Shown here piece by piece: positions 11,052-45,087 of a stretch of DNA of 64,000 bases (its first letter is position 1; each line of letters opens with the position of its first letter). Source of the stretch: Flavobacterium oreochromis. Lineage in GTDB: Bacteria; Bacteroidota; Bacteroidia; Flavobacteriales; Flavobacteriaceae. A program made the translations under genes and the position numbers. The notes below the pieces were generated by a model, which saw only the letters and a list, made by a program, of their open reading frames with translations, was not told the DNA's origin and ran no database searches. The DNA is taken from contig NZ_CP067377.1 in NCBI RefSeq assembly GCF_019565455.1, positions 558,001 through 622,000 on the forward strand. The letters run 5' to 3'.

Positions 11052-12038
11052 TTAATTTACAGAAGGACAATTACAATCATATTTTTCACGTTTACAACCA
11101 AAATCAAAACCTAAAGTTAATTGATGAAAACCAGCCCTGTCAAATTTTACATCTCCTATGACATAAGTATAATTATAGGCTAACATAAACTTTTTATAAT
11201 TAACTCCTACAATAGGTGTCAAATATTGTAAACGTTGCTTTTCTACAAATCCATTATTTATATATTGAGAACCATCAAGGCTGTTTCTATAAGATAATCC
11301 TGCCCAAAGTTTACCGAAGTCCATATTTTTATATGCTTTGATATTTACGTCTAAACTTCTTTCTTTCGTTAACTCTGTAAATTGAAACATAATAGAAGGT
11401 TCGTACAATATTTTATCACGATTTCCAAAAATATAACCTGAATTAATAACATATTTTCGAAGGTTACTTGACTCTATATCTGTATAAATATTTCTGCTTT
11501 TAAAAACTGCATTTTTCACAGTTGCGTGCGCATAAAAATCAAGAAAATTATACGAAGCTCCAAAATCAATATTATAATAACTTGCACTTTGCACTCCTCC
11601 ACTCACTATAGGATCAAAAGAGGATCCAAATTCTGTTTCATCTAACTGTAATTGATTCACTCCTAGATTTACTCCAAAAGACAAACGGTTTAAATCAATA
11701 TCATTTCTAGAAAATAAAATATGATGTGCGTATGTTGCCTTAAAACCTCTATTAGAATGATTACCATTACGGTCATTAAATAAAATAAGTCCAACCCCTG
11801 ATTTACCATCTTGATCTACATTACCATTAACACTTATAGTCTGTAAAGCGGGTGCTTTGTCAACTCCAAACCATTGTTTCCTAGCTGTAGCTCTAATTTT
11901 TGCACAACTAGCAGCTCCTGCCATTGATGGGTGTATTAAATAATAATTATCTGTTAAATAATCAGAATATACAGGTATATCAACCTGACCATACAAGGAC
12001 AAACTTACAAATGCGAATACAAGTGATAAATACTTCAT
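11052..12038 (-). CDS. PorP/SprF-family type IX secretion membrane protein (orphan)
   Basis: This 328-aa protein has a signal peptide (MKYLSLVFAFVSLSLYGQ). It continues with DIPVYSDYLTDNYYLIHPSMAGAASCAKIRATARKQW, the N-terminal pattern of PorP/SprF proteins: Y/N…N…NPA/PSMAG and an R.QW motif. The rest is a beta-barrel-like sequence. In F. johnsoniae SprF is needed for secretion of the adhesin SprB, and relatives usually sit next to a large adhesin with a gliding C-terminal domain. Here no such adhesin is adjacent, so its cargo is unknown. It ends with several cysteines (FGCKREKYDCNCPSVN), unlike the second SprF-like protein in this window. Confidence 0.88.
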   Translation of the reverse strand: MKYLSLVFAFVSLSLYGQVDIPVYSDYLTDNYYLIHPSMAGAASCAKIRATARKQWFGVDKAPALQTISVNGNVDQDGKSGVGLILFNDRNGNHSNRGFKATYAHHILFSRNDIDLNRLSFGVNLGVNQLQLDETEFGSSFDPIVSGGVQSASYYNIDFGASYNFLDFYAHATVKNAVFKSRNIYTDIESSNLRKYVINSGYIFGNRDKILYEPSIMFQFTELTKERSLDVNIKAYKNMDFGKLWAGLSYRNSLDGSQYINNGFVEKQRLQYLTPIVGVNYKKFMLAYNYTYVIGDVKFDRAGFHQLTLGFDFGCKREKYDCNCPSVN

Positions 12039-24872: not shown

Positions 24873-27800
24873 ATGAAAACCCCAAATTTTCAAAGACAAA
24901 CACACTTAATACTATTATTTTTAAGTTGCTTTTTTAATAGTATAGCATTTGCACAAGTTCCAGATGCTGATAAAGCGACTACTGGTAGCGGACTTTATAA
25001 AGATCGGATATTTTGGTTAAATTGGGATCTAAATAAAGATGGGGTTGCTGGCGACTTAATTGTTAATGGTGTCACAAAAACTTTCACTTCTCCTGCTGGA
25101 GTTATTTACCAAGCCACAATATCAAATGTTACAGGCACTCCTAAATCTAGTAAGTCTTACGATTATTCTGGAAATAATTTTCCTGACGGATATGGTAATA
25201 TCGGTGGTAATACGGGAGCAGGTAATATTGTAGGTATAAATAATGGCTGCAATGCCTGCACTTCAACTTTTAGAATTACCATCACAGCCAATTATCCTAA
25301 TGGCATATCAGGTAATGTAGCAGCTTTTGTCATTGGAGGAACAGAAACTCTAGCAAGCACAAATGAATATTATCAACTCACAGTACCTTCAGGAACTGTA
25401 AGATACATGGATAAATACGTTAAAAATAACAACTGGGCTAATACATCTATAAGATTAGATGTCTCAAACTCAGGAAAAACTATAAAAGTGACAAACCCTG
25501 GCTCTGGAGATAGTAGAGGTGATGCCTTACTAATTGCCGAAGATGTTCCTTATATAGATGCTCAAGTAAAAGGAGGTGGAGGACAACACTTTGGTATAGG
25601 ATTTTTAGAAGACCTTGATTTTTCAGATGCCCCAAATTCATATGGAAAAGCTACTCATATCGTAAATAACTCGATACAAGGTGGAACTTTTATCTCTCCC
25701 AGTCAAAACACTTTAACAACAACTACCAATATATTAGACATACAAAAGGGATCTTTTATAAGTCCTAATTTAACACTTGGAAATAACATAGATGTAGAAA
25801 GCGCATATAATCCTGTAGCAACAGGCAACGACCCTAATACAGATGACATCACTGGAATTGATGATGAAGATGGAATACAAGATATTAATTGGTCTACTTG
25901 TAGTGGAACAATATTTGTAAAAAATACTACTGGTAATCTAGCTTATTTAAATTTATGGATAGATGCCAATTCTAATGGTCTTTTTGATAACAATGAAAAT
26001 GCTAGCATTTCAGTACCTTCAGGAACAAATGGAAATATGAGCATTCCCCTAAATTCAATAAATGGTTTAACTTCAGGTAATAGTTATTATGCTAGACTAA
26101 GACTATCCACAACTCAAAACCTACCTCCTTCTGGATTTGCTGCTGATGGAGAGGTAGAAGATCATTGGATAAATATCTATAAAACAACTTTAACAACCAA
26201 TCCTCTTAATAGTTGCGTAGGCTCTACAATAAATTTTTCGGCTATCTCTGGAATGCTTAATTACAATTGGACAGGACCAAATGGATTTACATCCAATCAA
26301 CAAAATCCAGTAATAACGAACAGTAATACTAATCATAATGGTATTTATACCTTGACTGTTACTACGCCAGGAGGTTGTAGTATATCTGACTCAACAAATG
26401 TAATAGTAAACCCTCTACCTACAGCTCCAATTATAGGTGCTATTACACAACCTAGTTGTGCCATGGGTACGGGAAGTGTGGCATTAAGTGGTTTGCCTGC
26501 CTCGGGTACTTGGACTGTAACGGCTTCGCCTGGGGGAATTCTATATCGGGAACGGGAACAAATGTGGTTTTTACGGCTCTAAATCCTAATACTAATTATA
26601 GTTTTGTGGTTACTAATGCTGCGGGGTGTTCTTCTATTCAATCAATAAATATAACTATAAACAATTCTATATGTGCCGTAACCGAAACAACAGCTCCTAT
26701 TAACGGCCTTGCAGGAGGAACTACTGCACCATTAACAGCAAATGATACATTAAATGGAGTAAATGTTACCATAGGTACAGCACCAGGCAATGTAAAAATA
26801 ACAGCTTCTACAGTACCTACAGGATCAGGACTAATAGTAAATCCAGACGGAACAGTTAGCATACCAGCCAATACTCCTTCAGGAACTTACACCGTTAATT
26901 ACACCATTTGTGAGATTAATAATCCAACAAACTGTAGCAACGTTAATTCTAATATACTAGTTAGCAATCCAACTATTATAGCGGTAACCGAAACAACAGC
27001 TCCTATTAACGGCCTTGCAGGAGGAACTACTGCACCATTAACAGCAAATGATACATTAAATGGAGTAAATGTTACCATAGGTACAGCACCAGGCAATGTA
27101 AAAATAACAGCTTCTACAGTACCTACAGGATCAGGACTAATAGTAAATCCAGACGGAACAGTTAGCATACCAGCCAATACTCCTTCAGGAACTTACACCA
27201 TTAATTACACCATTTGTGAGATTAATAATCCAACAAACTGTAGCAACGTTAATTCTAATATACTAGTTAGCAATCCAACTATTATAGCGGTAACCGAAAC
27301 AACAGCTCCTATTAACGGCCTTGCAGGAGGAACTACTGCACCATTAACAGCAAATGATACATTAAATGGAGTAAATGTTACCATAGGTACAGCACCAGGC
27401 AATGTAAAAATAACAGCTTCTACAGTACCTACAGGATCAGGACTAATAGTAAATCCAGACGGAACAGTTAGCATACCAGCCAATACTCCTTCAGGAACTT
27501 ACACCGTTAATTACACCATTTGTGAGATTAATAATCCAACAAACTGTAGCAACGTTAATTCTAATATACTAGTTAGCAATCCAACTATTATAGCGGTAAC
27601 CGAAACAACAGCTCCTATTAACGGCCTTGCAGGAGGAACTACTGCACCATTAACAGCAAATGATACATTAAATGGAGTAAATGTTACCATAGGTACAGCA
27701 CCAGGCAATGTAAAAATAACAGCTTCTACAGTACCTACAGGATCAGGACTAATAGTAAATCCAGACGGAACAGTTAGCATACCAGCCAATACTCCTTCAG

Positions 27801-30800
27801 GAACTTACACCGTTAATTACACCATTTGTGAGATTAATAATCCAACAAACTGTAGCAACGTTAATTCTAATATACTAGTTAGCAATCCAACTATTATAGC
27901 GGTAACCGAAACAACAGCTCCTATTAACGGCCTTGCAGGAGGAACTACTGCACCATTAACAGCAAATGATACATTAAATGGAGTAAATGTTACCATAGGT
28001 ACAGCACCAGGCAATGTAAAAATAACAGCTTCTACAGTACCTACAGGATCAGGACTAATAGTAAATCCAGACGGAACAGTTAGCATACCAGCCAATACTC
28101 CTTCAGGAACTTACACCATTAATTACACCATTTGTGAGATTAATAATCCAACAAACTGTAGCAACGTTAATTCTAATATACTAGTTAGCAATCCAACTAT
28201 TATAGCGGTAACCGAAACAACAGCTCCTATTAACGGCCTTGCAGGAGGAACTACTGCACCATTAACAGCAAATGATACATTAAATGGAGTAAATGTTACC
28301 ATAGGTACAGCACCAGGCAATGTAAAAATAACAGCTTCTACAGTACCTACAGGATCAGGACTAATAGTAAATCCAGACGGAACAGTTAGCATACCAGCCA
28401 ATACTCCTTCAGGAACTTACACCGTTAATTACACCATTTGTGAGATTAATAATCCAACAAACTGTAGCAACGTTAATTCTAATATACTAGTTAGCAATCC
28501 AACTATTATAGCGGTAACCGAAACAACAGCTCCTATTAACGGCCTTGCAGGAGGAACTACTGCACCATTAACAGCAAATGATACATTAAATGGAGTAAAT
28601 GTTACCATAGGTACAGCACCAGGCAATGTAAAAATAACAGCTTCTACAGTACCTACAGGATCAGGACTAATAGTAAATCCAGACGGAACAGTTAGCATAC
28701 CAGCCAATACTCCTTCAGGAACTTACACCGTTAATTACACCATTTGTGAGATTAATAATCCAACAAACTGTAGCAACGTTAATTCTAATATACTAGTTAG
28801 CAATCCAACTATTATAGCGGTAACCGAAACAACAGCTCCTATTAACGGCCTTGCAGGAGGAACTACTGCACCATTAACAGCAAATGATACATTAAATGGA
28901 GTAAATGTTACCATAGGTACAGCACCAGGCAATGTAAAAATAACAGCTTCTACAGTACCTACAGGATCAGGACTAATAGTAAATCCAGACGGAACAGTTA
29001 GCATACCAGCCAATACTCCTTCAGGAACTTACACCGTTAATTACACCATTTGTGAGATTAATAATCCAACAAACTGTAGCAACGTTAATTCTAATATACT
29101 AGTTAGCAATCCAACTATTATAGCGGTAACCGAAACAACAGCTCCTATTAACGGCCTTGCAGGAGGAACTACTGCACCATTAACAGCAAATGATACATTA
29201 AATGGAGTAAATGTTACCATAGGTACAGCACCAGGCAATGTAAAAATAACAGCTTCTACAGTACCTACAGGATCAGGACTAATAGTAAATCCAGACGGAA
29301 CAGTTAGCATACCAGCCAATACTCCTTCAGGAACTTACACCATTAATTACACCATTTGTGAGATTAATAATCCAACAAACTGTAGCAACGTTAATTCTAA
29401 TATACTAGTTAGCAATCCAACTATTATAGCGGTAACCGAAACAACAGCTCCTATTAACGGCCTTGCAGGAGGAACTACTGCACCATTAACAGCAAATGAT
29501 ACATTAAATGGAGTAAATGTTACCATAGGTACAGCACCAGGCAATGTAAAAATAACAGCTTCTACAGTACCTACAGGATCAGGACTAATAGTAAATCCAG
29601 ACGGAACAGTTAGCATACCAGCCAATACTCCTTCAGGAACTTACACCGTTAATTACACCATTTGTGAGATTAATAATCCAACAAACTGTAGCAACGTTAA
29701 TTCTAATATACTAGTTAGCAATCCAACTATTATAGCGGTAACCGAAACAACAGCTCCTATTAACGGCCTTGCAGGAGGAACTACTGCACCATTAACAGCA
29801 AATGATACATTAAATGGAGTAAATGTTACCATAGGTACAGCACCAGGCAATGTAAAAATAACAGCTTCTACAGTACCTACAGGATCAGGACTAATAGTAA
29901 ATCCAGACGGAACAGTTAGCATACCAGCCAATACTCCTTCAGGAACTTACACCGTTAATTACACCATTTGTGAGATTAATAATCCAACAAACTGTAGCAA
30001 CGTTAATTCTAATATACTAGTTAGCAATCCAACTATTATAGCGGTAACCGAAACAACAGCTCCTATTAACGGCCTTGCAGGAGGAACTACTGCACCATTA
30101 ACAGCAAATGATACATTAAATGGAGTAAATGTTACCATAGGTACAGCACCAGGCAATGTAAAAATAACAGCTTCTACAGTACCTACAGGATCAGGACTAA
30201 TAGTAAATCCAGACGGAACAGTTAGCATACCAGCCAATACTCCTTCGGGAACTTACACCGTTAATTACACCATTTGTGAGATTAATAATCCAACAAACTG
30301 TAGCAACGTTAATTCTAATATACTAGTTATTTCTCCAAGTATCAATGCTCAAAATGACACTTTTGTGACTACAAATGGAAGTATAGGAGGGATAGTAGGG
30401 TCTATTTTTTTCAAATAACGGTAATGGTATTGATTTAGCCAATGGAGCACAAGCGGCATTAAATAACGTAACTTTAACTGTTCCAATTTGGTCTGGACAA
30501 TCAGTACCGTATATCAATGCTAATGGATATGTAATAGTGCCTCCTGGGACACCTTCAGGTGAATACAGTATAGGATATACGATTTGTATGCTTAATCCTT
30601 TTCAAAACATATGTGATAAAGCAACAGTAACAATACAAGTTGAGCCAGAGAAAGGAGATGAGATTGTAATTTATAACCATATGACTCCCAATGGAGATGG
30701 TTATAATGATATTTTCTTGATAGATGGTATAGATAAGTTTCCTAATAATACTGTAGAGGTTTATAACCGTTGGGGAGTATTAGTTTATGAGGCAATTGGT

Positions 30801-30962
30801 TATAACAATAATGACCGTGCATTCCGAGGAATATCTACAGGAAGAGTTACGATTAATCAGTTAGAGCAATTACCAGAAGGGACGTATTATTATATGTTCA
30901 AATATGTTAATGCAGAAGGGGTAACCAAAGAAAAAGCAGGTTATTTATATATCAATAGATAG
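24873..30962 (+). CDS. Giant repeat adhesin with gliding-motility C-terminal domain (T9SS cargo), two frameshifts
   Basis: Repaired length is about 2029 aa. A signal peptide ([20 protein letters not shown]…AFAQ) leads into a CshA-like non-repeat domain ([17 protein letters not shown]) and a region with [15 protein letters not shown] and GEVEDHW motifs (GEVED-type), then Ig/PKD-like modules. Twelve 102-aa repeats follow ([13 protein letters not shown]…[17 protein letters not shown]). The C-terminal domain ([15 protein letters not shown]…[13 protein letters not shown]…GTYYYMFKY) is the gliding-motility-associated (TIGR04131-like) type B sorting signal. The frame breaks at 26532-26538 (one base missing) and at the T run 30405-30411 (one base extra). 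SprF-like and OmpA-like genes follow, so it is a probable T9SS-secreted cell-surface adhesin. Its ligand is unknown. Confidence 0.9.
26678..30329 (+). repeat. Twelve tandem 306-bp repeats inside the adhesin gene
   Basis: Copies start every 306 bases from 26678 (26984, 27290 … 30044), and the last ends near 30329. I compared copies by eye, and they are almost identical at the DNA level, including synonymous sites. A recurring difference is G or A in ACC[G/A]TTAAT (26894 and equivalents), coding Val in copies 1, 3, 4, 6, 7, 8, 10, 11 and 12 and Ile in copies 2, 5 and 9. Copy 12 also has TCGGGA in place of TCAGGA. Each unit encodes 102 aa, so copy-number change keeps the frame. Confidence 0.97.
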
Positions 30963-30968
30963 AGAATT

Positions 30969-31000
30969 AACATTCCTCCGTTGTAAAGGCGGAGGATGTT
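30969..31000 (+). promoter_or_regulatory. Intercistronic hairpin between adhesin and sprF-like gene
   Basis: AACATTCCTCCG (30969-30980) and CGGAGGATGTT (30990-31000) form a GC-rich stem with a nine-base loop, seven bases after the adhesin stop. No T run follows, only TAAAAAAG. It may be an mRNA-stability or processing element, or a weak terminator that lowers expression of the downstream genes. Confidence 0.6.
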
Positions 31001-31016
31001 TAAAAAAGAGTATCAT

Positions 31017-31931
31017 ATGAAAAAGAGAATTATATATTTACTACTTTTAATAAGTGGATCTGGTTTTGCTCAACAAGAAGCACAGTACACCCAATATATG
31101 TATAACACTGCTAATGTAAATCCTGGTTATGCAGGTACCCGAGGTTGTTTTAGTGCATTAGTAATGCACCGTTCACAATGGGTAGGTTTAGAAGGCGCAC
31201 CGCAGACAAATACAGTTGCACTAAGTACCCCTTTAGGTCTTAATAATAAAATGGGATTAGGAGTAAGTGTTATAAACGATAAAATAGGACCTTCAGATGA
31301 AAATGCAATATCAGTAGACTTAAGCTATAATATTGATACCTCAGAGAGATCTAAATTGTCTTTTGGGTTAAAAGGGACAGCAAATTTTTTCAGTGTTGAT
31401 TTTAATAAAACCAAGATTCATAACGTAACAGATGGTTTGTTAAGACAAAATGTAGATAATCGCTTTTTTCCTAATATAGGAGCTGGAGCATTTTGGTATA
31501 GTGATAAGAGCTATGTAGGTTTATCTATACCGTTTATCTTAGAACAAAAATATTATGACAATGATGTTCAATACGTAGCAAGTGAGCGTATGCACCCGCA
31601 TTTAATAGCAGGACACGTATTTCGTTTAAGCAGCGAAGTACAATTTAAGCCATCCACTATGATAAAATACGTAAATGGAGCCCCTTTACAAGTTGATTTG
31701 TCAGGTAATTTTTGGTTTAATGAAAAATTTTCATTGGGAGCAGCCTATCGTTGGAGTGCAGCATGGAGTGCTATGGCAGGATTTCAGATTAACGATTCTT
31801 GGTTAATAGGATATGCCTATGATCGTGATGTTACCCGATTAGGGAACTTTAATTCTGGTTCTCATGAAATATTTTTACGTTATGAATTGTTTAAACGTGT
31901 AGAAAAAGTGGTAGCCCCACGTTTCTTCTAA
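31017..31931 (+). CDS. PorP/SprF-family type IX secretion membrane protein
   Basis: The ATG at 31017 gives 304 aa with a signal peptide (MKKRIIYLLLLISGSGFAQ). EAQYTQYMYNTANVNPGYAGTRG and ALVMHRSQWVGLEGAPQT follow, the classic PorP/SprF start: QYTQYM…N…NPGYAG and R.QWVG..GAP. The remainder is barrel-like and ends FNSGSHEIFLRYEL. The ATG at 30996 is rejected because it lies in the hairpin stem and precedes the signal peptide. Family members assist secretion and surface attachment of adhesins with gliding C-terminal domains, so the adhesin just upstream is the expected client. Confidence 0.92.
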   Translation: MKKRIIYLLLLISGSGFAQQEAQYTQYMYNTANVNPGYAGTRGCFSALVMHRSQWVGLEGAPQTNTVALSTPLGLNNKMGLGVSVINDKIGPSDENAISVDLSYNIDTSERSKLSFGLKGTANFFSVDFNKTKIHNVTDGLLRQNVDNRFFPNIGAGAFWYSDKSYVGLSIPFILEQKYYDNDVQYVASERMHPHLIAGHVFRLSSEVQFKPSTMIKYVNGAPLQVDLSGNFWFNEKFSLGAAYRWSAAWSAMAGFQINDSWLIGYAYDRDVTRLGNFNSGSHEIFLRYELFKRVEKVVAPRFF

Positions 31932-31941
31932 AACTATTATT

Positions 31942-33897
31942 ATGAAAAAAATAATTTTATTTACCGTATTAGGATTGTCTTTGCATAATGGATATGCACA
32001 AGAGAGAAAGATCATAAAAGCAGGTAATCACTATAATGGTTTAGCATACGTCGATGCAATTGATACCTACTTAAAAGTAGCTCAAAAAGGATATAAATCA
32101 AAAGAGTTATTTCAACGTTTAGGTGATTCATATTATTACAATGCTAAATTCATAGAAGCTAATAAATGGTATACTGAATTATTCGCCTTAGGTGAAACAA
32201 TAGAAGCAGAATACTATTATCGTTATGCTCAAACGCTAAAATCATTAGAAGATTATAAAAAAGCAGATGAGTATATGAATAGATTTTATCAATTAACATC
32301 AAAAGATACACGAGCTAATATCTTTAACAATCAAAAAGATTATAAAAATATTATAGCAAAGAATTCAGGACGTTTTGAGATAAAAGCAGTAAGTGTTAAT
32401 GGAAAGTCTTCAGATTATGGGACAGCATTTTATGGAGATAAAGTTTTATTTGCTTCAACCCGAGACTCTATAGGTCTTTTTAAAACCCGAGCAAAATGGA
32501 CAGGGAATTCATTTACCAATTTATATATTGCTGATAAAAATGAAACAGCAGATGATCTACTCAAAGCAGTACGTTTCTCAAAAGCAATCAACTCAAAATA
32601 CCATGAAGATTCACCCGTTTTTACCAAAGATTTAAAGACGGTTTACTTTACCCGTAATAATTTTAATGAAGGCAAAGTAGGAAAAGACGATAACAAAGTA
32701 GTAAACTTAAAAATATATCGTGCGAACTTAAACTCCAAAGGAGAATGGGTAAATGTAGTTGAATTACCTTTTAATAGCGATCAATATAGCGTAGCCCATC
32801 CAGCATTATCACCAGATGAAAAGACTCTGTATTTTGCATCCAATATGCCAGGGACTTATGGACAATCAGATTTGTTCAAAGTAGCTATTTTAGGAGAAAA
32901 TAGTTATGGAACCCCTGTTAATTTAGGAAGTGGAATTAATACAGAATCAAGAGAAACATTTCCTTTTATAACAGAAAAAGGAGTATTATATTATTCAACT
33001 GATGGTCAACAAGGACTAGGAGGCCTAGATATTTATGCTACACAATTAGATGAAAAAGGAATGGCATCTAATTTAGTAAACATTGGATCCCCAATAAATG
33101 GTCCTATGGATGACTTTGCTTTTATTATAGACGAAAAAGGAAAAGGATTCTTCTCTTCAAATCGTACAGGAGGAAAAGGTCTAGATGATATTTATAGCTT
33201 CATAGAAAAATCCCCTTTAAATTTAGAGATTCAACATGAGTTAGCAGGAATAGTTACAAATTCAGAAACAGGAGAAATAATTCCAGGAGCTACCGTAACC
33301 TTGTATGATGATAAATTTAATGAAATTGGAAAAGTTTTAGCAGATGAAAAAGGCCTTTATGATTTCAAGAAAGTACCTGCTGGTAAAAAATATTACGTAA
33401 GAGCAGAGAAAGACGAATATGAAACAAAAGAAAAATCAGTTGATATTCCAAACAAAACAGGAAAAACCAACTTGCCAATAGATACAGCTAAAAAAGTACG
33501 AGTAATAAAAGAAGGTTCAGATCTAGCAAAAATATTTGATATTAAAATCATTTATTTTGATTTAGATAAATCATTTATTCGTTCTGATGCAGCAGTAGAG
33601 CTAGCAAAAATATTAGAAGTAATGAAACAATATCCAACGATGAAAGTAGATGTTAGATCCCATACAGATTGTCGTCAAACAGCAGCATATAATGCTAAAC
33701 TTTCTGATCGTAGAGCAAAAGAAACAATGGCTTGGTTAGTTAAAAATGGCATAGCCAAAGATCGTTTAACAGGACGTGGTTATGGAGAATCACAGTTAGT
33801 AAACAACTGTGCTTGCGAACCTACAAACGAATCTTCTTGTACAGAAGAACAACATCAAGCTAACAGAAGAAGCGAGTTTATTATCGTAAAAATGTAA
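31942..33897 (+). CDS. OmpA-family protein with TPR, PD40 and carboxypeptidase-like domains
   Basis: The 651-aa product has a signal peptide (MKKIILFTVLGLSLHNGYAQ) and TPR-like helices at residues 25-130 (AYVDAIDTYLKVAQKGYKSKE…). WD40-like PD40 repeats span about 150-420 (DSPVFTKDLKTVYFTRNNF, AHPALSPDEKTLYFASNMPG, FSSNRTGGKGLDDIY). A carboxypeptidase-regulatory beta sandwich at about 430-510 (AGIVTNSETGEIIPGATVTLYDD) and a C-terminal OmpA domain (IYFDLDKSFIRSDAAVELAKI…VRSHTDCRQTAAYN…LSDRRAKETMAWL) follow. It probably anchors the adhesin/SprF complex to peptidoglycan. It starts 10 bases after the sprF-like stop. Confidence 0.92.
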   Translation: MKKIILFTVLGLSLHNGYAQERKIIKAGNHYNGLAYVDAIDTYLKVAQKGYKSKELFQRLGDSYYYNAKFIEANKWYTELFALGETIEAEYYYRYAQTLKSLEDYKKADEYMNRFYQLTSKDTRANIFNNQKDYKNIIAKNSGRFEIKAVSVNGKSSDYGTAFYGDKVLFASTRDSIGLFKTRAKWTGNSFTNLYIADKNETADDLLKAVRFSKAINSKYHEDSPVFTKDLKTVYFTRNNFNEGKVGKDDNKVVNLKIYRANLNSKGEWVNVVELPFNSDQYSVAHPALSPDEKTLYFASNMPGTYGQSDLFKVAILGENSYGTPVNLGSGINTESRETFPFITEKGVLYYSTDGQQGLGGLDIYATQLDEKGMASNLVNIGSPINGPMDDFAFIIDEKGKGFFSSNRTGGKGLDDIYSFIEKSPLNLEIQHELAGIVTNSETGEIIPGATVTLYDDKFNEIGKVLADEKGLYDFKKVPAGKKYYVRAEKDEYETKEKSVDIPNKTGKTNLPIDTAKKVRVIKEGSDLAKIFDIKIIYFDLDKSFIRSDAAVELAKILEVMKQYPTMKVDVRSHTDCRQTAAYNAKLSDRRAKETMAWLVKNGIAKDRLTGRGYGESQLVNNCACEPTNESSCTEEQHQANRRSEFIIVKM

Positions 33898-33922
33898 TAA
33901 AATTTTTGTTTAATAGAAAACA

Positions 33923-37904: not shown

Positions 37905-40900
37905 TTAATTCCCCAATGTATAACGCAAAGTAAAACCTGCTCTAATATTTGTAATAGGGAAAGAAGTAGAAATGACCGCTCTATTAAAATTATAATCAAA
38001 ATAAAACAAGGTGGTCAGATTAGAGGAAAATTTATAATCTCCAGAAATCTTAGCTGTTATAATATTCTGTCCTCCTCCTAATTGATTGTTATTATAATCT
38101 ATATTTCTTACGATCGTTTTATTATTTCTAAACGAAATATCTCCACGTAAATTAATATCACTTTTCACGATACCTGTATTATTATCCGCTAATCGTGAAC
38201 GGATGGCTACATCTTTAATACGATATCCTATACCAAATATATATTCTTGCCCTTTTAACTCTGTAACTAAATTATTATCAAAGCTCAAAGATAATGTTCG
38301 GTCTTTTTTCACCTCTCCTATAAATTTCAGTGAGTTTTTCATTTGAATATCTAATCGCAATAATGGACTAAACTGTTCTGTTAAATTTACATTACCAATA
38401 AGAGTAGAACTATAATAATTTCCAGACACATCAACTCCATTAGGATTTTTATCATATTCAAGATTTGAACGATATGAATTTAAGGTATAAGCAGACTTAT
38501 AAGCATGTTGTATACTAAAACTTCTAAAACGGTCTTTAAAAAATTTATAACGCATCAAACCAGTATATTTAATATTCCAATTAGGCAATGGAAATATTCT
38601 ATTAAAACTTAAAGGAACGTTTGATGAATTTCTAAAATCTGAAGTATAGGCTGCTAGAAATGCAGGTAATAACACTTGTTGACTATTTTTACCGTATCCT
38701 TTAGGGAATCCATCAGAATCAAGTTTAGAAGGATCATATAGCGGATCATAAGAAACACGTTGTTGAGCTAAGCGTTCTGCAATTTCTCTTCTACTATTTC
38801 GAAATGCGTCAAAAGCCTTAGAACCATTTTCATCACTTGCAGCAAAAGCTGTACCTATCATTAATGTACTAATTGAATAATTACCTGTATAATAAGGAGA
38901 TAATGAATTATAATTCCCATCTGTAACTGTATATTGTTCGGTATAATTATTAGAAATAGTACGATCCGCCACTAAATCAATAGTTAAATCAGCAAATGGT
39001 TCTAATTTAGCATTTGCTTGTAATTGTTTAGTATTTACTTTAGTAAAATTCTGATTAAACTTATCATAATTTGTTAGCCAACCATTTTTAGCTGCTTCAA
39101 AACGCACTTCGTCTTGCATTCCGAAAACAAAACCTAATGAAGGTCTGGAAGAACCTAAAAACCCTATGGTTGGTAAATATCCGGGTAATGAAGTACCATT
39201 AGTCTCTGAATAATTTACTTGTATATTTTTAATAGCAGTAACAACTCCTATTAGTCCATCTAAAAAAATATTTTGTTTTGCTATTTTTTCTTTTGGTTTT
39301 GCAACTATTTTTTCTCCAGGTTTAGGTGCTGTTACAGGTACAACTGGCTTAACTGGTTGTTTGCTTCTTTCTGAAAACTTAACTAATCCTATATATTTAT
39401 AGAAATTAGTCATTGAAAAGCTTGTATTTAATTTATGCGTATTTGCATTTTGAATAGTATTACCTAGATCGTAAACTAAGTTTGGATTAGCTAATTTATC
39501 TGGATAAAAATTTCTCATTGCATCTGAACCTCTATTCCAAGAATAATTCCCTGTATAGGTATAATCTGATTTAATAAAAGAAAAAACAGGAATTTTTTCT
39601 ATAGGTAAAGTATAATTAGCTGTAATTTGTTGATTATGTTGATTAGGTTCTCCAATATTCCAAAAATCATCCCAGACAGTATACTCTGGTTTTTGAAAAT
39701 CTGCATTATTTTGACTAATAATATTATTGTTCCTTATAATGTTACCTGTAGTAGCTGTATAATTTATTTTTAATGAACGTGTAAGATTAAAATTAAATCC
39801 ATAATTATAATTAAATAAATAGTTTCTACGGTATAGTGGTTCAACGCCTGCTACTATGCTTTGATCAACTTGACGAAATTCTTGCTTATTAAATTGACGT
39901 AATATAGATGAACTAAAGTTAATATTAGATGGTAATAAATTAAAATTTAAATCACTCAATAATTTCCAATAAGCACTTTTTTTCATAAAAGATGTTTGCT
40001 TAAAGGGCTCAATTGTTTTTGCTTTAAAGGTATAGGCATAATCAGCACTTGTACGTATTTGTTGATCTAAAACATTTTGAACTTCAAAATCACGATGTCT
40101 CATTTCGTTATAAGAATACGAAAGTGTTAGATTTTCAACATCATAAATATGGGGTTTTTGCTCTGGTGAACGTTCTTTTTTACACCAATAAAATTAATAC
40201 TTTTTCTTTTAGTAAAATTTTCGGCTCTTTTTCTGATAGCGTCTTTTTCTTGTTCTGTTTGAGCTACTGCTAAAACATCTTTTAATTTTAAGTCTTGATA
40301 TAACGGATCGTATTCTGGTGTAATAGTCTGTTCTCCTACCGCATAATTAAATGGTAAATTAACACCCCATTTTTTAGGTAATAATTTACCCAAACTAACA
40401 TTTGTTACAAGATCATATTGCCACATATCCTCTCGACTTCTCTCATTTGGCTTTTGTTCAATAGAACCAAAACCAATAGTCCCCATACGACCTGTAGCAG
40501 AAAGGGTTAAAAAATCAGCCATATTTGTATCTAAGCTTGCAACAGCTGCCATTCCTCCTGACTGATCCATTTCGGCTAAACGCAATTCATTAAACCAAAC
40601 TTCTCCTCGTAATTGTTTTTTATCAATATCTTTAGGATTTTTTAATCCCACCATCAGCGTACGAACATATCCTATATTAGGATTTCCTTTTACTCGAATC
40701 TTCATGCCTATTGTTGCACCACTATCATACACAACTGCTTCTCTAACATACGATTTATCTTCAGAATCTATAAATTGAGGATCTGCCTTAAAACTTTCTA
40801 ATTTTAGCTTACCTAAAGCAGAAAGTGCCAAGTTAATTTCGTTTTCTGCAGGCCAAACAACATCTGCTGCACCTTGTCGGAAGGGAGTTACTTTTAATGG

Positions 40901-43900
40901 TACTTCAATTTCATAAAAATTATTAGTAAAATCATTTCCAAAACGAAGAAATGCACTTAAGGTTTTATCTTTTAAATCATTTTCAACTAAAGATTCTGCA
41001 TGCAAAAACATCTTTATACGATTGTATTGACGCATATCAACACTCACATTTTTGAATACAGCTTTTGACTCACCGTCTACTAAACCTTTAGATTCATCAT
41101 TTGCAGAACCTACACGTAAAACTAGGGATTGCTCATTTTGTTTAACAATTGTATTATTGTTATTAATTTGCTCTCGTTGTACATTAGGAGGCAAAACATA
41201 AGGAATTGGTAGTCGTTGAGCATTTTCCTCTATATTAATGCTTTGCACCTCAAAATTAGTATTTGAACCAACAACGCTTGTTAATTGACCTGTATAGCGT
41301 CTCCATTCTCCTCTAACTAAGTCTAAAGCTCCAAAACGTAAGGTAATTTGATCATCAAAACCATTAACCAACATACGCATAAATCGGATAGAGCGGGTAT
41401 CTGATATTCCCCCAACAGGGATTCCTTCTGAAATTGGAATTTTATACTGTATCCAACGTGCATTCTTTTTTTCTCCATTTCCAAAATCTACATCCTTTAC
41501 AATACGTTCACTCACTACGTATTTATCACCCGATTTAGCATTTGGTTTTACATCAATTTCAAATTTATAATACCCTTCAACTGTATTCATAGTATTATCT
41601 CTATTAATATCTTCAACATCTGGAATTGTAGAGTTTCCTCTATTAGTATCTGTAACATCTACAGGTGAGTTTTTTTCTGTTCCGTTGTATTTTTTATATC
41701 GATCAACAATTCCTCCTGAAGTATTTAAGTAATACTGATAATTATCCATAGCAGGGTCTTCTTGATTTGCAAAATTAGGGAACTGTACTCGTTCTTCTAC
41801 ATCGCTTAACCCATTGAGTCCTACATCTTGCAAGGTTCTATTATTATTATCTGCATCAAAAGTATAAATAAGAGATTGATTAGCTGGGACTTTACCCCAC
41901 TTAGAAGGTATTGTTTTTTGAACTGAACCTAATCCTGGTAATCCATTTTCGTACATTTTTTTACCATCTTTCAAAATATCCTCTGACACTTCTCCTAAAT
42001 GAATTGAAATTTTCCCTGTATTAGCTGGAGAAACACCATTAATATTTTCATAATATGGGTCAAGTAACCAAAACTGAACATATTCAACATTAGCTTGTTC
42101 AAAATTAGTAGTTGTAATAGGACGCATAATACCCGCAAAAGATTTTGTAGGATTTGGCATTTCATTATTTAATGCAGCTGGGTTAAAATTATAAGGGCCC
42201 CTTTCTTTAGGATAATAAGTTAAATCCAAAGTATTTACAACTCTTGAATCTCCTATGGCGATACTGGTTTGCGGATACAGCTCATCCATATAAATTCTTC
42301 TTGTATTATACTTAGCTACATCATTATCTGTTATTCCCGAAGGTCTTTGATTTGTGTAAAATATAGGGTCAATACTATACCAAGATAATTTAGCTCTATT
42401 AAATCCGTAACTTAAATCACTAGCACTTGTTTTATCTTGAAATTCATCTGGAATACTAGCTAAACTCCATGACTGAGGAGCTCTCATATCAATAGTTGAT
42501 TGTGATCCTTCAAAATCATCTACATAGACTGTTGACTCTCCATTAAAACGATCTATTTTAGATGTCCCAGGCATCAAATAAGCTAATTCTCCTCTAAAAG
42601 AGAAATTAGAAGGCACGTCCGTATCAATATTAGGAAGTTTATTAACTAATCTAGTAAAAAATGGTACTTCTGTAGAAAAATTACCATTAATACCAAACAT
42701 AGTATTATTCACAGATTCTTGTCCATAATTTGTTTTTTGAGTAAAAGGACGTTCAGACATATTAATTAAAGTTCCATTTATTTGAAACTTATCGGAAATT
42801 TTATGTTCAATATTAAATCCCATATAACGTCTAGTTTGTTGACCAAACATAGAATTATTTTCAACGGAAACCTGAATTGGTGTACCTGAAGCTTGTAATG
42901 AGGGATCTAAAATTTGAACACGTCCCGCTTGGTAATTTACGGTATAGTCTACACCTTCTTGTAAAACTCTTCCACCAGCTGTTACAACAACAGAACCTCT
43001 AGGAACATTAACCGCTCCTAAAGAAATACCATCTCCTCCTGTAGACTTAAATTTACCTTTTAATTGAAATTTATTTTTCTCACTATTCTGTAAAGCAGCA
43101 GCCTGTGTTTTTTTATATAAACTAGTATAAACGTATTTCTTTTGATTTGAATTATAAGAATTTTCATCATTATAATTTTCAGCAACATTATTTGAAACTA
43201 ATTTTTCAAATAATGATTTTCCAAAAGGTTCTACTTTAGTAAATATAACGCGTCCATTTTGAGTATCTATTGTTAATCCTGGTAAAAAATCAAAAAAGCC
43301 ATCACCTCCTTTAGGATCATTATAAAAATCTAATTTATCTAAATCAAATACTTTAAGTAAAGGAACATTAGAAAAATCGCCTCTTAAAGGTAAAGGGGTT
43401 CCTAATGTAATATAATTTACAGGTGAAGGATCTGTATATAGTATATTAAATTTAAAATCTGATTTTTCTAACTGATAAGCACCTGGGATTTGATAAATAT
43501 TTTTCATCATCAGGTTCCAAATGGGTTTATCTATATTATTTAAATTAGGCTTTAATAGCTTTAAAACCAAAGCTTTTGTAATAGGTATATCATTAGTTCC
43601 TGTTGTTGATGAAGTAACGCCATCATTCCCAAATTCTCCTACTTGATACACTTTATTTCCTTCTGTATATTGATAAGCAACAGCTAATACTTCGTCATTT
43701 GTCAAACGTTGATTTAATGAAATATATCCGAGTTGTGGATGATAAGTATATTCATTAGAATTCAGTTTACGCGCATTTTCTAGCTTAGAATAATCAACTC
43801 CTTCTTTTACGTTTAAACCATTAAAACCTGTTGATACATTAGAAACATCTCGTATAGCATCATTTAACAAATTACCTGCCTCTCCTATCTTTTTAGGATT

Positions 43901-45087
43901 AAAACCATTATTTGCATTATCTACAGGTGTATCAGGTGAAACTTTAAAGAAATCAGCAGGGATTGGATTTAAACCTACTATTTCATTTCCTTGTAATTTA
44001 CTGCTTTCTGCTTCTCCTAAATCTGAAAGAGCTACTATATTACGGATATTATTTCCTTCTACTCCAGTAGTAATTCTATTTTGTCTATTAGTAACCCAAA
44101 CTTCTAAACGGGTAATTTGTGTTCTTGAATTAATTACGGGATAAGTTTCTAATGCGCGATCATAATTATTTCTAAAAAATTGTGATAAGAAAAAATGACG
44201 ATCAGCATCATAATCTAAAGCAAATAAACTAAAATCTTGTATCAAGCCTCCTCCTTGGGCAGTTACTGTTCTAGTTTGTGATTTTTGTTCAGAGAAGACA
44301 CCTGTAAAAGTAGTTCTTCCAAATTTTAATTCTGTTTTAAAACCGAATAAGCTTTGGGCTCCTCTAATCAGACTATTACTCAACGGCATACTAACATTTC
44401 CTACCTCAATTTTTTGAAGTATATCATCTTCCGTAGGTGTGTATTGCAACTTTATTAGATTTTGAAAAGCAAAAGTTGACTCTGTATCGTAATTAACGTT
44501 TACGCGAAGACGAGTACCAACTTGCCCCATTAAGCTCATACTAATGCGCTGATCGAAATCAAAATTAAAATTACTTCTGTTTCGGGGTGAAAAAGCAGGA
44601 TTATCTTGTTTAGAATAACGAATTCCTAAATCTACCTCTACACTTCCGGTGGGTTTAATATCAATTGTATTACTTCCAAAAATAGATTCAAAAAGTCCTG
44701 ATCGGATATAATAACGAGGTAATAAATCTTTCTTCTTTTCTTCTGAATTTTTCTTTTGCCCAGCTACTGCATCTGCTTTTTCTTTAAAATATTTATGTAT
44801 AGCTTCTTTTTTTATTAACTTCTGATATTCTTCAGGCGTTAATACTACTGGATAATCTATTGTAAATCCTTCAAATGATTTTGTATAAATATATCGATCA
44901 GTTACAGGATCATATGTATAAGCTTCTAAAATACTTTGGGGATTTGGTAATTCCATTTTACCTTTTTGATATCCTTTTAAAGTATCTTTTACTTCCTGAG
45001 AATAGAGTGTATTAAAAACAAAGAAAAACAGTATATAAAAACTGTTTTTAAATAATAAATTGAATGGGGAAAAAAATTATTTTTCAA
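37905..45087 (-). CDS. sprA: Type IX secretion translocon protein SprA, two frameshifts
   Basis: SprA (Sov) forms the giant outer-membrane barrel through which T9SS cargo leaves the cell. The large part from 44956 contains YYIRSGLFESIFGSNTIDIKPTGSVEVDLG, NFNFDFDQRISMSLMGQVGTRLRVNVNYDTEST and VYVDDFEGSQSTIDMR, typical of SprA. A break in the A/T run 40176-40181 is repaired by one base to KKERSPEQKPHIYDVENL, joining the last third, which ends NIRAGFTLRYTLGN. No ATG with a signal peptide exists upstream of 44956. A TTG at 45087 plus one base in the run 45045-45049 gives MKNNFFPHSIYYLKNSFYIL…LYSQE, a good signal peptide. Repaired length is about 2394 aa, as in F. johnsoniae. ruvA ends four bases upstream. 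Confidence 0.92.

What the first reader, a model, noticed from the sequence alone, without database searches (positions are those of the whole stretch)
26678..30329. Twelve nearly identical 306-bp tandem repeats in a secreted adhesin
The repeats are nearly identical even at synonymous positions, so the array is young or is kept uniform by gene conversion. Because 306 is a multiple of three, gain or loss of copies changes adhesin length without breaking the frame. That would vary how far the N-terminal CshA/GEVED-like binding part stands from the cell surface. Such arrays are also prone to collapse in short-read assemblies, so the true copy number may differ.
Basis: partly seen in the sequence, partly recalled or inferred. 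Interest (0 to 1): 0.7.

Follow-up and report, generated by a model that had tools for sequence, protein, structure and literature searches.

The report
Length-variable repeat stalk of surface adhesin
A Flavobacterium of the columnaris fish-disease group has a surface-adhesin gene with twelve near-identical stalk repeats, and related genomes carry other numbers of them: a known kind of adjustable-length adhesin, here with anchoring genes that are also nearly identical to those of a second adhesin.

Summary
The array is real: 12 in-frame 306-bp units; eight of copies 1-11 are identical, three differ at one base. It is the stalk of a GEVED-headed adhesin with a T9SS type B sorting domain, followed by a PorP/SprF carrier and an OmpA-like gene. 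The same locus has 8 units in F. covae and 12 in F. davisii. Each array is uniform within its genome, yet window units differ from sister units about as much as the unique flank does (dS about 1.1 and 1.0). F. oreochromis drafts, near-identical to the window outside the array, show one unit; assembly collapse is not excluded. So young or homogenised, and variable in number: supported. Corrections: in this record the gene lies in three frames and about six genes of the window are frame-broken, sprA included, probably indel errors. The carrier lacks the CxC tail that ties SprF to the gliding track, so the adhesin is probably static. Extra: sorting-domain end, carrier and OmpA-like gene (3.27 kb) are 99.97% identical to those of a second adhesin locus with another head. 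Known kind: Periscope Proteins.

The parts
24873..26582 (+). N-terminal part (head): ORF of 569 aa with a GEVED domain at residues 358-434; an Ig-like stretch follows (Ig_2, below its cut-off)
26418..26677 (+). single linker domain before the array; its 5' end resembles the first and its 3' end the second of two linker domains in F. oreochromis protein P0163
26456..26582 (+). stretch in which the reading frame changes between head and stalk
   Evidence: overlap of the two ORFs; described only
26678..30329 (+). twelve 306-bp (102-aa) stalk units, the last one diverging at its end
30408..30536 (+). stretch in which the reading frame changes between stalk and sorting domain
   Evidence: described only
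30537..30962 (+). C-terminal part with T9SS type B sorting domain (PF13585 92.0 bits, cut-off 27; TIGR04131 46.3 bits, cut-off 35)
30996..31931 (+). PorP/SprF-family protein, the likely carrier and anchor; its C-terminal tail has no cysteine
31942..33897 (+). OmpA-like protein with TPR and PD40 matches (CHU_0125-like, 420.6 bits, below the family cut-off of 620)
30653..33920 (+). anchor module of 3268 bp, 99.97% identical to the 3' end of a second adhesin locus (A2) in the same genome

Best explanation
A T9SS-exported, outer-membrane-anchored fibrillar adhesin of the Periscope kind in a member of the Flavobacterium columnare group, most likely F. oreochromis. A unique GEVED-containing head is held out by a stalk of identical 102-aa, probably Ig-like units; the type B sorting domain is carried and held by the adjacent PorP/SprF-family protein. 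Recombination between identical units adds or removes whole units in frame and keeps the array of each genome uniform (concerted evolution), so protein length changes fast while the unit sequence stays under purifying selection. The carrier lacks the cysteine pair that couples SprF to the gliding track, so the adhesin is more likely static than a gliding adhesin. Shown: array, domains, uniformity within and divergence between genomes, different unit numbers in related assemblies, absence of the CxC tail. Inferred: export, anchoring, rod shape, static position, effect of length on reach, and that the frame changes in this record are mostly sequencing indels.
For: Array and domains. Within-array identity 97.5-99.9% in four genomes, against 74-75% between the window and F. 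covae or F. davisii (one F. davisii unit was mis-taken there and put right). Unit dS 1.12-1.18 against N-part dS 0.92-1.05; unit dN 0.13-0.15. In the unrooted tree the window, F. covae and G057 units each form a group with support 0.99-1.00. Unit numbers 12, 8, 12 and 1. The window linker looks like a fusion of the two linkers of P0163, the trace of a deletion between homologous domains. Type B substrates stay bound to their PorP-like carriers (PMC9143113, abstract; PMC12635249, passages). [quoted passage not shown] psychrophilum isolates (PMC8400371, section read).
Against: In this record the gene is in three frames, and in the closed F. davisii and F. covae records it is also in several frames, so real decay or switching cannot be excluded. 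The single-unit allele comes from drafts that may collapse repeats. The window and F. davisii both have 12 units. Units of F. covae and F. davisii are closer (dS 0.36) than their N-parts (dS 0.92), which simple vertical concerted evolution does not predict. The unit matches no Pfam family above its cut-off (best Big_9, 17.9 of 23.6 bits) and the one structure model is poor (mean pLDDT 56.5), so the rod is not shown.
Confidence: 0.63

Rival explanations
1. The gene is truly broken or switched off by frameshifts in this strain (decay or phase variation), and the array is the stalk of a non-functional allele.
For: Three frames here; sprA, the T9SS translocon gene, is split too; the closed F. davisii and F. 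covae records also change frame within this gene, and five of the 12 F. davisii units carry the same one-base insertion.
Against: Besides the adhesin, five F. columnare reading frames that are open in the draft G354 fall in two or more frames in the window, in about 50 kb of coding compared, too many for one gene's decay. Completeness is 95.67% on a single closed contig. Draft proteins P0163, P0126, P0164 and P0165 are open through the array. Unit dN is far below dS.
Confidence: 0.14
2. The number twelve is an assembly product and the true number in this strain is different.
For: The record is rich in apparent indels, no reads are at hand, and drafts of relatives break or shorten the array.
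Against: One contig crosses the array; a variant base recurs in copies 2, 5 and 9 and copy 12 is distinct, so copies were told apart; independent closed genomes show long uniform arrays of their own unit sequence.
Confidence: 0.09
3. It is a gliding adhesin of the SprB kind that moves along the cell.
For: Type B sorting domain and a PorP/SprF-family carrier next to it.
Against: The carrier has no cysteine in its C-terminal tail, while two of the six PorP/SprF matches in the genome end in CxC, the motif that SprF needs for the track (PMC12635249, passages).
Confidence: 0.08

Closest known systems
Periscope Proteins (SasG, Rib, Sgo_0707, CdrA, CshA; PMC8201768 abstract and two sections, PMC9704523 passages)
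   Same: Long, highly identical tandem units between an N-terminal head and a C-terminal anchor; unit number differs between related genomes
   Different: Export and anchoring by T9SS type B sorting domain and PorP/SprF carrier; no T9SS member was named in the parts of these papers that I saw; length variation within one species rests on drafts here
Repeat-bearing gliding motility-associated protein of F. psychrophilum (PMC8400371, passages and section 3.4)
   Same: Same genus, T9SS-type protein with a repeat number that differs among isolates (35 to 88 units), seen only with long reads
   Different: Sequence not compared here; the paper reports motif counts, not a 306-bp homogenised array or a shared anchor module
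SprB with SprF of F. johnsoniae (PMC9143113 abstract, PMC12635249 passages)
   Same: Type B cargo next to a PorP/SprF-family carrier
   Different: The carrier here lacks the CxC tail, so coupling to the moving track is not expected
Duplicated adhesin, PorP/SprF and outer-membrane-protein region of F. psychrophilum that borders a 1.9-Mb inversion (PMC5808330, passages)
   Same: Repeated copies of an adhesin-anchor gene set within one chromosome
   Different: There the 10-kb repeat is said to include the adhesin and is inverted; here only the sorting-domain end, carrier and OmpA-like gene are shared, in direct orientation, under different heads

Membership tests
Periscope Proteins | tandem units longer than 50 residues and at least 80% identical | tested here: met
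   102 aa per unit, 99.3% mean DNA identity; criterion from PMC8201768, methods section
Periscope Proteins | unit number differs between closely related genomes | tested here: met
   closed sister species: 8 in F. covae against 12 in the window and in F. davisii
Periscope Proteins | unit number differs between strains of one species | tested here: inconclusive
   one unit in F. oreochromis drafts P0163 and P0126 against 12 in the window; drafts may collapse arrays
Periscope Proteins | N-terminal functional (ligand-binding) domain | tested here: inconclusive
   GEVED domain found; binding not testable here
Periscope Proteins | attachment to the cell surface | tested here: inconclusive
   sorting domain and adjacent carrier gene found; attachment itself not testable here
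Periscope Proteins | units fold singly and stack into a rod | tested here: inconclusive
T9SS type B substrates | C-terminal type B sorting domain | tested here: met
   TIGR04131 46.3 bits (cut-off 35), PF13585 92.0 bits (cut-off 27)
T9SS type B substrates | PorP/SprF-family carrier gene next to it | tested here: met
   30996-31931, TIGR03519 272.3 bits (cut-off 90.55)
Gliding adhesins of the SprB-SprF kind | CxC motif in the carrier's C-terminal tail | tested here: not met
   tail without cysteine; motif from PMC12635249, passages
CshA fibril proteins | CshA repeat or CshA head domain | tested here: not met
   no CshA family listed for the ORFs at E 0.1 or the units at E 1

The most novel reading that the evidence does not exclude
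Two levels of concerted evolution in one adhesin system: stalk units are homogenised within each array, and the anchor module (end of the sorting domain, carrier, OmpA-like gene) is homogenised by gene conversion between two adhesin loci whose heads and stalks are different. This would keep every head compatible with one carrier while heads and stalk lengths diversify, and could let heads be exchanged onto a common anchor.
Probability: 0.4. Interest if true: 0.6.

Novelty: new member of a known kind. Interest (0 to 1): 0.45.

Why it matters
It extends adjustable-length adhesins to a T9SS-anchored locus in the columnaris group and offers a length marker for comparing isolates. The shared anchor module gives a natural experiment: in F. 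davisii the first adhesin lacks the carrier and OmpA-like genes, and its sorting domain is not homogenised with the second locus. It also shows that unit number, and which head belongs to which anchor copy, can be lost in draft assemblies of these bacteria.

Tried and rejected
CshA membership: not found. Gliding adhesin: carrier tail without cysteine. Recently acquired foreign array: not favoured, because unit dS to the sister species is about that of the N-part. Relatives of the unit on plasmids: no match by tblastn in 72,556 records. High whole-protein scores on the repeat ORF (Big_9, head completion protein, CopC, IsdC and others) are sums over twelve copies; on one or two units no family reached its cut-off. 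Solved structures: a profile of A3 gave four chains at E 0.066 or worse, not taken as relatives. Structure: one job gave a poor model, so no fold search was run. A DNA test of a fused linker against F. davisii and F. covae was only suggestive; the clearer case came from P0163. Of the seven split frames, one lies where the F. columnare draft itself is broken (near 5.2 kb) and one near 4.6 kb is unclear; five are counted. In one search the twelfth F. davisii unit was taken from the wrong place (a copy of unit 9); it was put right, and the tree uses the right one. In one search the C-tails of minus-strand loci were read on the wrong strand; one search read both strands.
Full report
Observation. 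TRF finds one array at 26678-30329, 306 bp x 11.9, 99% matches, no indels. Eight of copies 1-11 are identical; copies 2, 5 and 9 share one base change; copy 12 has one synonymous change and then runs into the next domain. One variant shared at spacings of 3 and 4 is what copying of blocks of units would leave (inference).

The gene. The array lies in a 1320-aa ORF, 26456-30418. Upstream, in another frame, is a 569-aa part with a GEVED domain (PF20009, 47.3 bits, cut-off 24.4); downstream, again in another frame, is the T9SS type B sorting domain. Then come a PorP/SprF-family gene and an OmpA-like gene. The unit has 102 aa; its best Pfam match is Big_9, below the cut-off (17.9 of 23.6 bits).

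Frame breaks. ORFs of the F. columnare draft G354 were placed on the window: 45 could be placed, over about 50 kb of coding, and 7 were split. One of the seven is a break in the draft itself (near 5.2 kb), one near 4.6 kb is unclear, and five lie in two or more frames in the window (near 10.2, 16.1-16.4, 23.9, 40.2 and 50.65 kb). The adhesin, whose draft ORF is cut by the contig end, makes six. SprA has an open frame of 2395-2411 aa in the four relatives searched and is split here. The genome is one contig of 3,540,003 bases at 95.67% completeness. Uncorrected indels are the simplest reading; short homopolymer runs lie in both stretches where the adhesin changes frame. F. oreochromis protein P0163, deposited as one open piece, covers both places. 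Against this reading, the closed F. davisii and F. covae records also change frame within the gene, and five of 12 F. davisii units share one insertion, which I cannot settle without reads.

Who it is. A scan with the aligned N-terminal parts gave nine loci; the close named ones are F. columnare NBRC 100251 (draft), F. davisii 90-106 and F. covae AL-02-36 (closed chromosomes), 83-85% identical in the best segment. P0163, named F. oreochromis by NCBI, matches the window in 165 of 167 N-part residues aligned, both mismatches lying in the linker, and in 113 of 113 residues of the C-terminal piece. So the window is most likely F. oreochromis; the record's own name was not shown to me.

Copy number and uniformity. 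F. covae has 240 bp x 16.2 and then 8 units of 306 bp; F. davisii has 240 bp x 28.4 and then 12 units of 306 bp. The window has one linker domain and no 240-bp array. Mean identity within arrays is 99.3% (window), 97.5% (F. covae), 99.4% (F. davisii, with one mis-taken unit) and 99.9% (G057); between the window and these 74.4, 74.8 and 66.8%. In the unrooted tree window, F. covae and G057 units form groups with support 0.996, 0.990 and 1.000, the F. davisii units being the remaining cluster; the one partial F. columnare unit is placed with low support. Window units against F. covae and F. davisii have dS 1.12 and 1.18; the N-part, first 380 or so codons, has 0.92-1.05 against three species; unit dN is 0.13-0.15. 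So the unit is as old as the gene, while the copies in each array are recent. One result does not fit a simple tree: F. covae and F. davisii units have dS 0.36 but their N-parts 0.92. F. oreochromis drafts P0163 (contig of 13,393 bases) and P0126 (979 bases, 4 member sequences) show a single unit that differs from window copy 12 at three residues; P0163 has two linker domains, and the window linker has the 5' end of the first and the 3' end of the second. Drafts P0165 (F. covae) and P0164 (named F. columnare) show two units, and P0005 (F. columnare, cut at its start) seven full ones. Since drafts may collapse arrays, the closed genomes count most.

Wider spread. 61 of 101 genus genomes have a relative of the unit at E 0.001 (53 of 85 good ones). 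The N-part matched in 120 of 398 at E 1e-10, in most listed rows only by its last 150 residues or so; six, the own genome included, match at E below 1e-150. Orthologous heads carry other stalks: 321 bp with at least 43 copies in G139, 225 bp with about 76 in the stretch fetched from G112; the 306-bp unit occurs 17 times behind a different head in G057. The main periods (306, 240, 303, 321, 225, 360, 282, 300) are multiples of three; a few weaker TRF rows (107, 310, 332, 605) are not.

Static or gliding. The C-terminal CxC of SprF binds the gliding track (PMC12635249, passages). Of six PorP/SprF matches in the genome, two have a CxC tail, one of them at window 11052-12038; the window carrier, its twin at A2 and one more have none, and the sixth is a longer frame without cysteine in the part read. 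I infer a static adhesin.

Shared anchor. Window 30653-33920 is 99.97% identical over 3268 bp to the 3' end of locus A2 (near 1.87 Mb), whose 2938-aa ORF has another head (SdrD_B and DUF11 matches) and a 303-bp x 19.1 array. F. covae A1 and its two A2 loci share the module at 98.9-99.0%. F. davisii has two A2 loci, 99.8% identical over 10.5 kb, while its A1 has only the sorting-domain end (396 bp, 88.9%), and the module search found copies at its two A2 loci only. Between species the module is 85-91% identical. Heads of A1 and of A2 each align across species but not with each other, so both loci seem older than the species, and the modules have been homogenised or replaced since. In the F. columnare draft the module is a contig of its own (3157 bases), and its last 156 bp lie on two further contigs, once at the very end of a contig, as for a collapsed two-copy repeat. 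A two-copy region of adhesin, PorP/SprF and outer-membrane-protein genes is reported for F. psychrophilum (PMC5808330, passages), and gene conversion among surface proteins is discussed for P. gingivalis (PMC5266723, passages).

Literature. Periscope criteria: PMC8201768, abstract and two sections; PMC9704523, passages. PMC8286594, passages: 134 fibrillar-adhesin-like proteins carry CHU_C, all in Bacteroidetes. PMC8400371: passages and one section. Searches: periscope protein with type IX secretion, 0 papers; gliding motility-associated C-terminal with repeats and copy number, 0; F. columnare with tandem repeat and gliding motility, 4; type IX secretion with gene conversion and adhesin, 3; Flavobacterium with tandem repeats, adhesin and type IX, 2; SprB with repeat, adhesin and length, 39, of which 15 listed. 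In what I saw of these, this locus is not described; I did not read the full texts.

Verdict. A real, recent, in-frame stalk array whose unit number differs between relatives: a T9SS-anchored member of a known kind, in a record with frame errors, with the shared anchor module as the most interesting extra.

Noticed in passing
window 30653-33920 and L071 11834-15101: Anchor module (sorting-domain end, PorP/SprF, OmpA-like gene) 99.97% identical between two adhesin loci with different heads.
   Followed up: yes
window 37905-44956 (-): sprA, the T9SS translocon gene, is split into two frames here while relatives have one frame of about 2400 aa.
   Followed up: partly
window near 10.2, 16.1-16.4, 23.9 and 50.65 kb: Further genes that are open in the F. 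columnare draft fall in two or more frames here, which points to an indel-rich record.
   Followed up: partly
window 11052-12038 (-): A second PorP/SprF-family carrier with a CxC tail, with no type B adhesin identified next to it in the ORFs that I scanned.
   Followed up: no
L108 18786-22457: Five of 12 F. davisii units carry the same one-base insertion, which breaks the frame; error or real is open.
   Followed up: partly
L118 (F. davisii A1, 3' side): F. davisii A1 keeps only the sorting-domain end; no carrier or OmpA-like module was found beside it.
   Followed up: partly
L108 and L112: Stalk units of F. covae and F. davisii are closer (dS 0.36) than their heads (dS 0.92), a hint of exchange between species.
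   Followed up: no
L066, L067, L068: Orthologs of the head carry giant stalks of other units: 321 bp with at least 43 copies (G139, in two frames) and 225 bp with about 76 copies (G112, one frame of 7210 aa).
   Followed up: partly
L119, L120, L132, L133: The second adhesin (A2) is present twice in F. davisii and twice in F. covae, 99.8% and 98.3% identical over 10.5 and 8.4 kb.
   Followed up: partly
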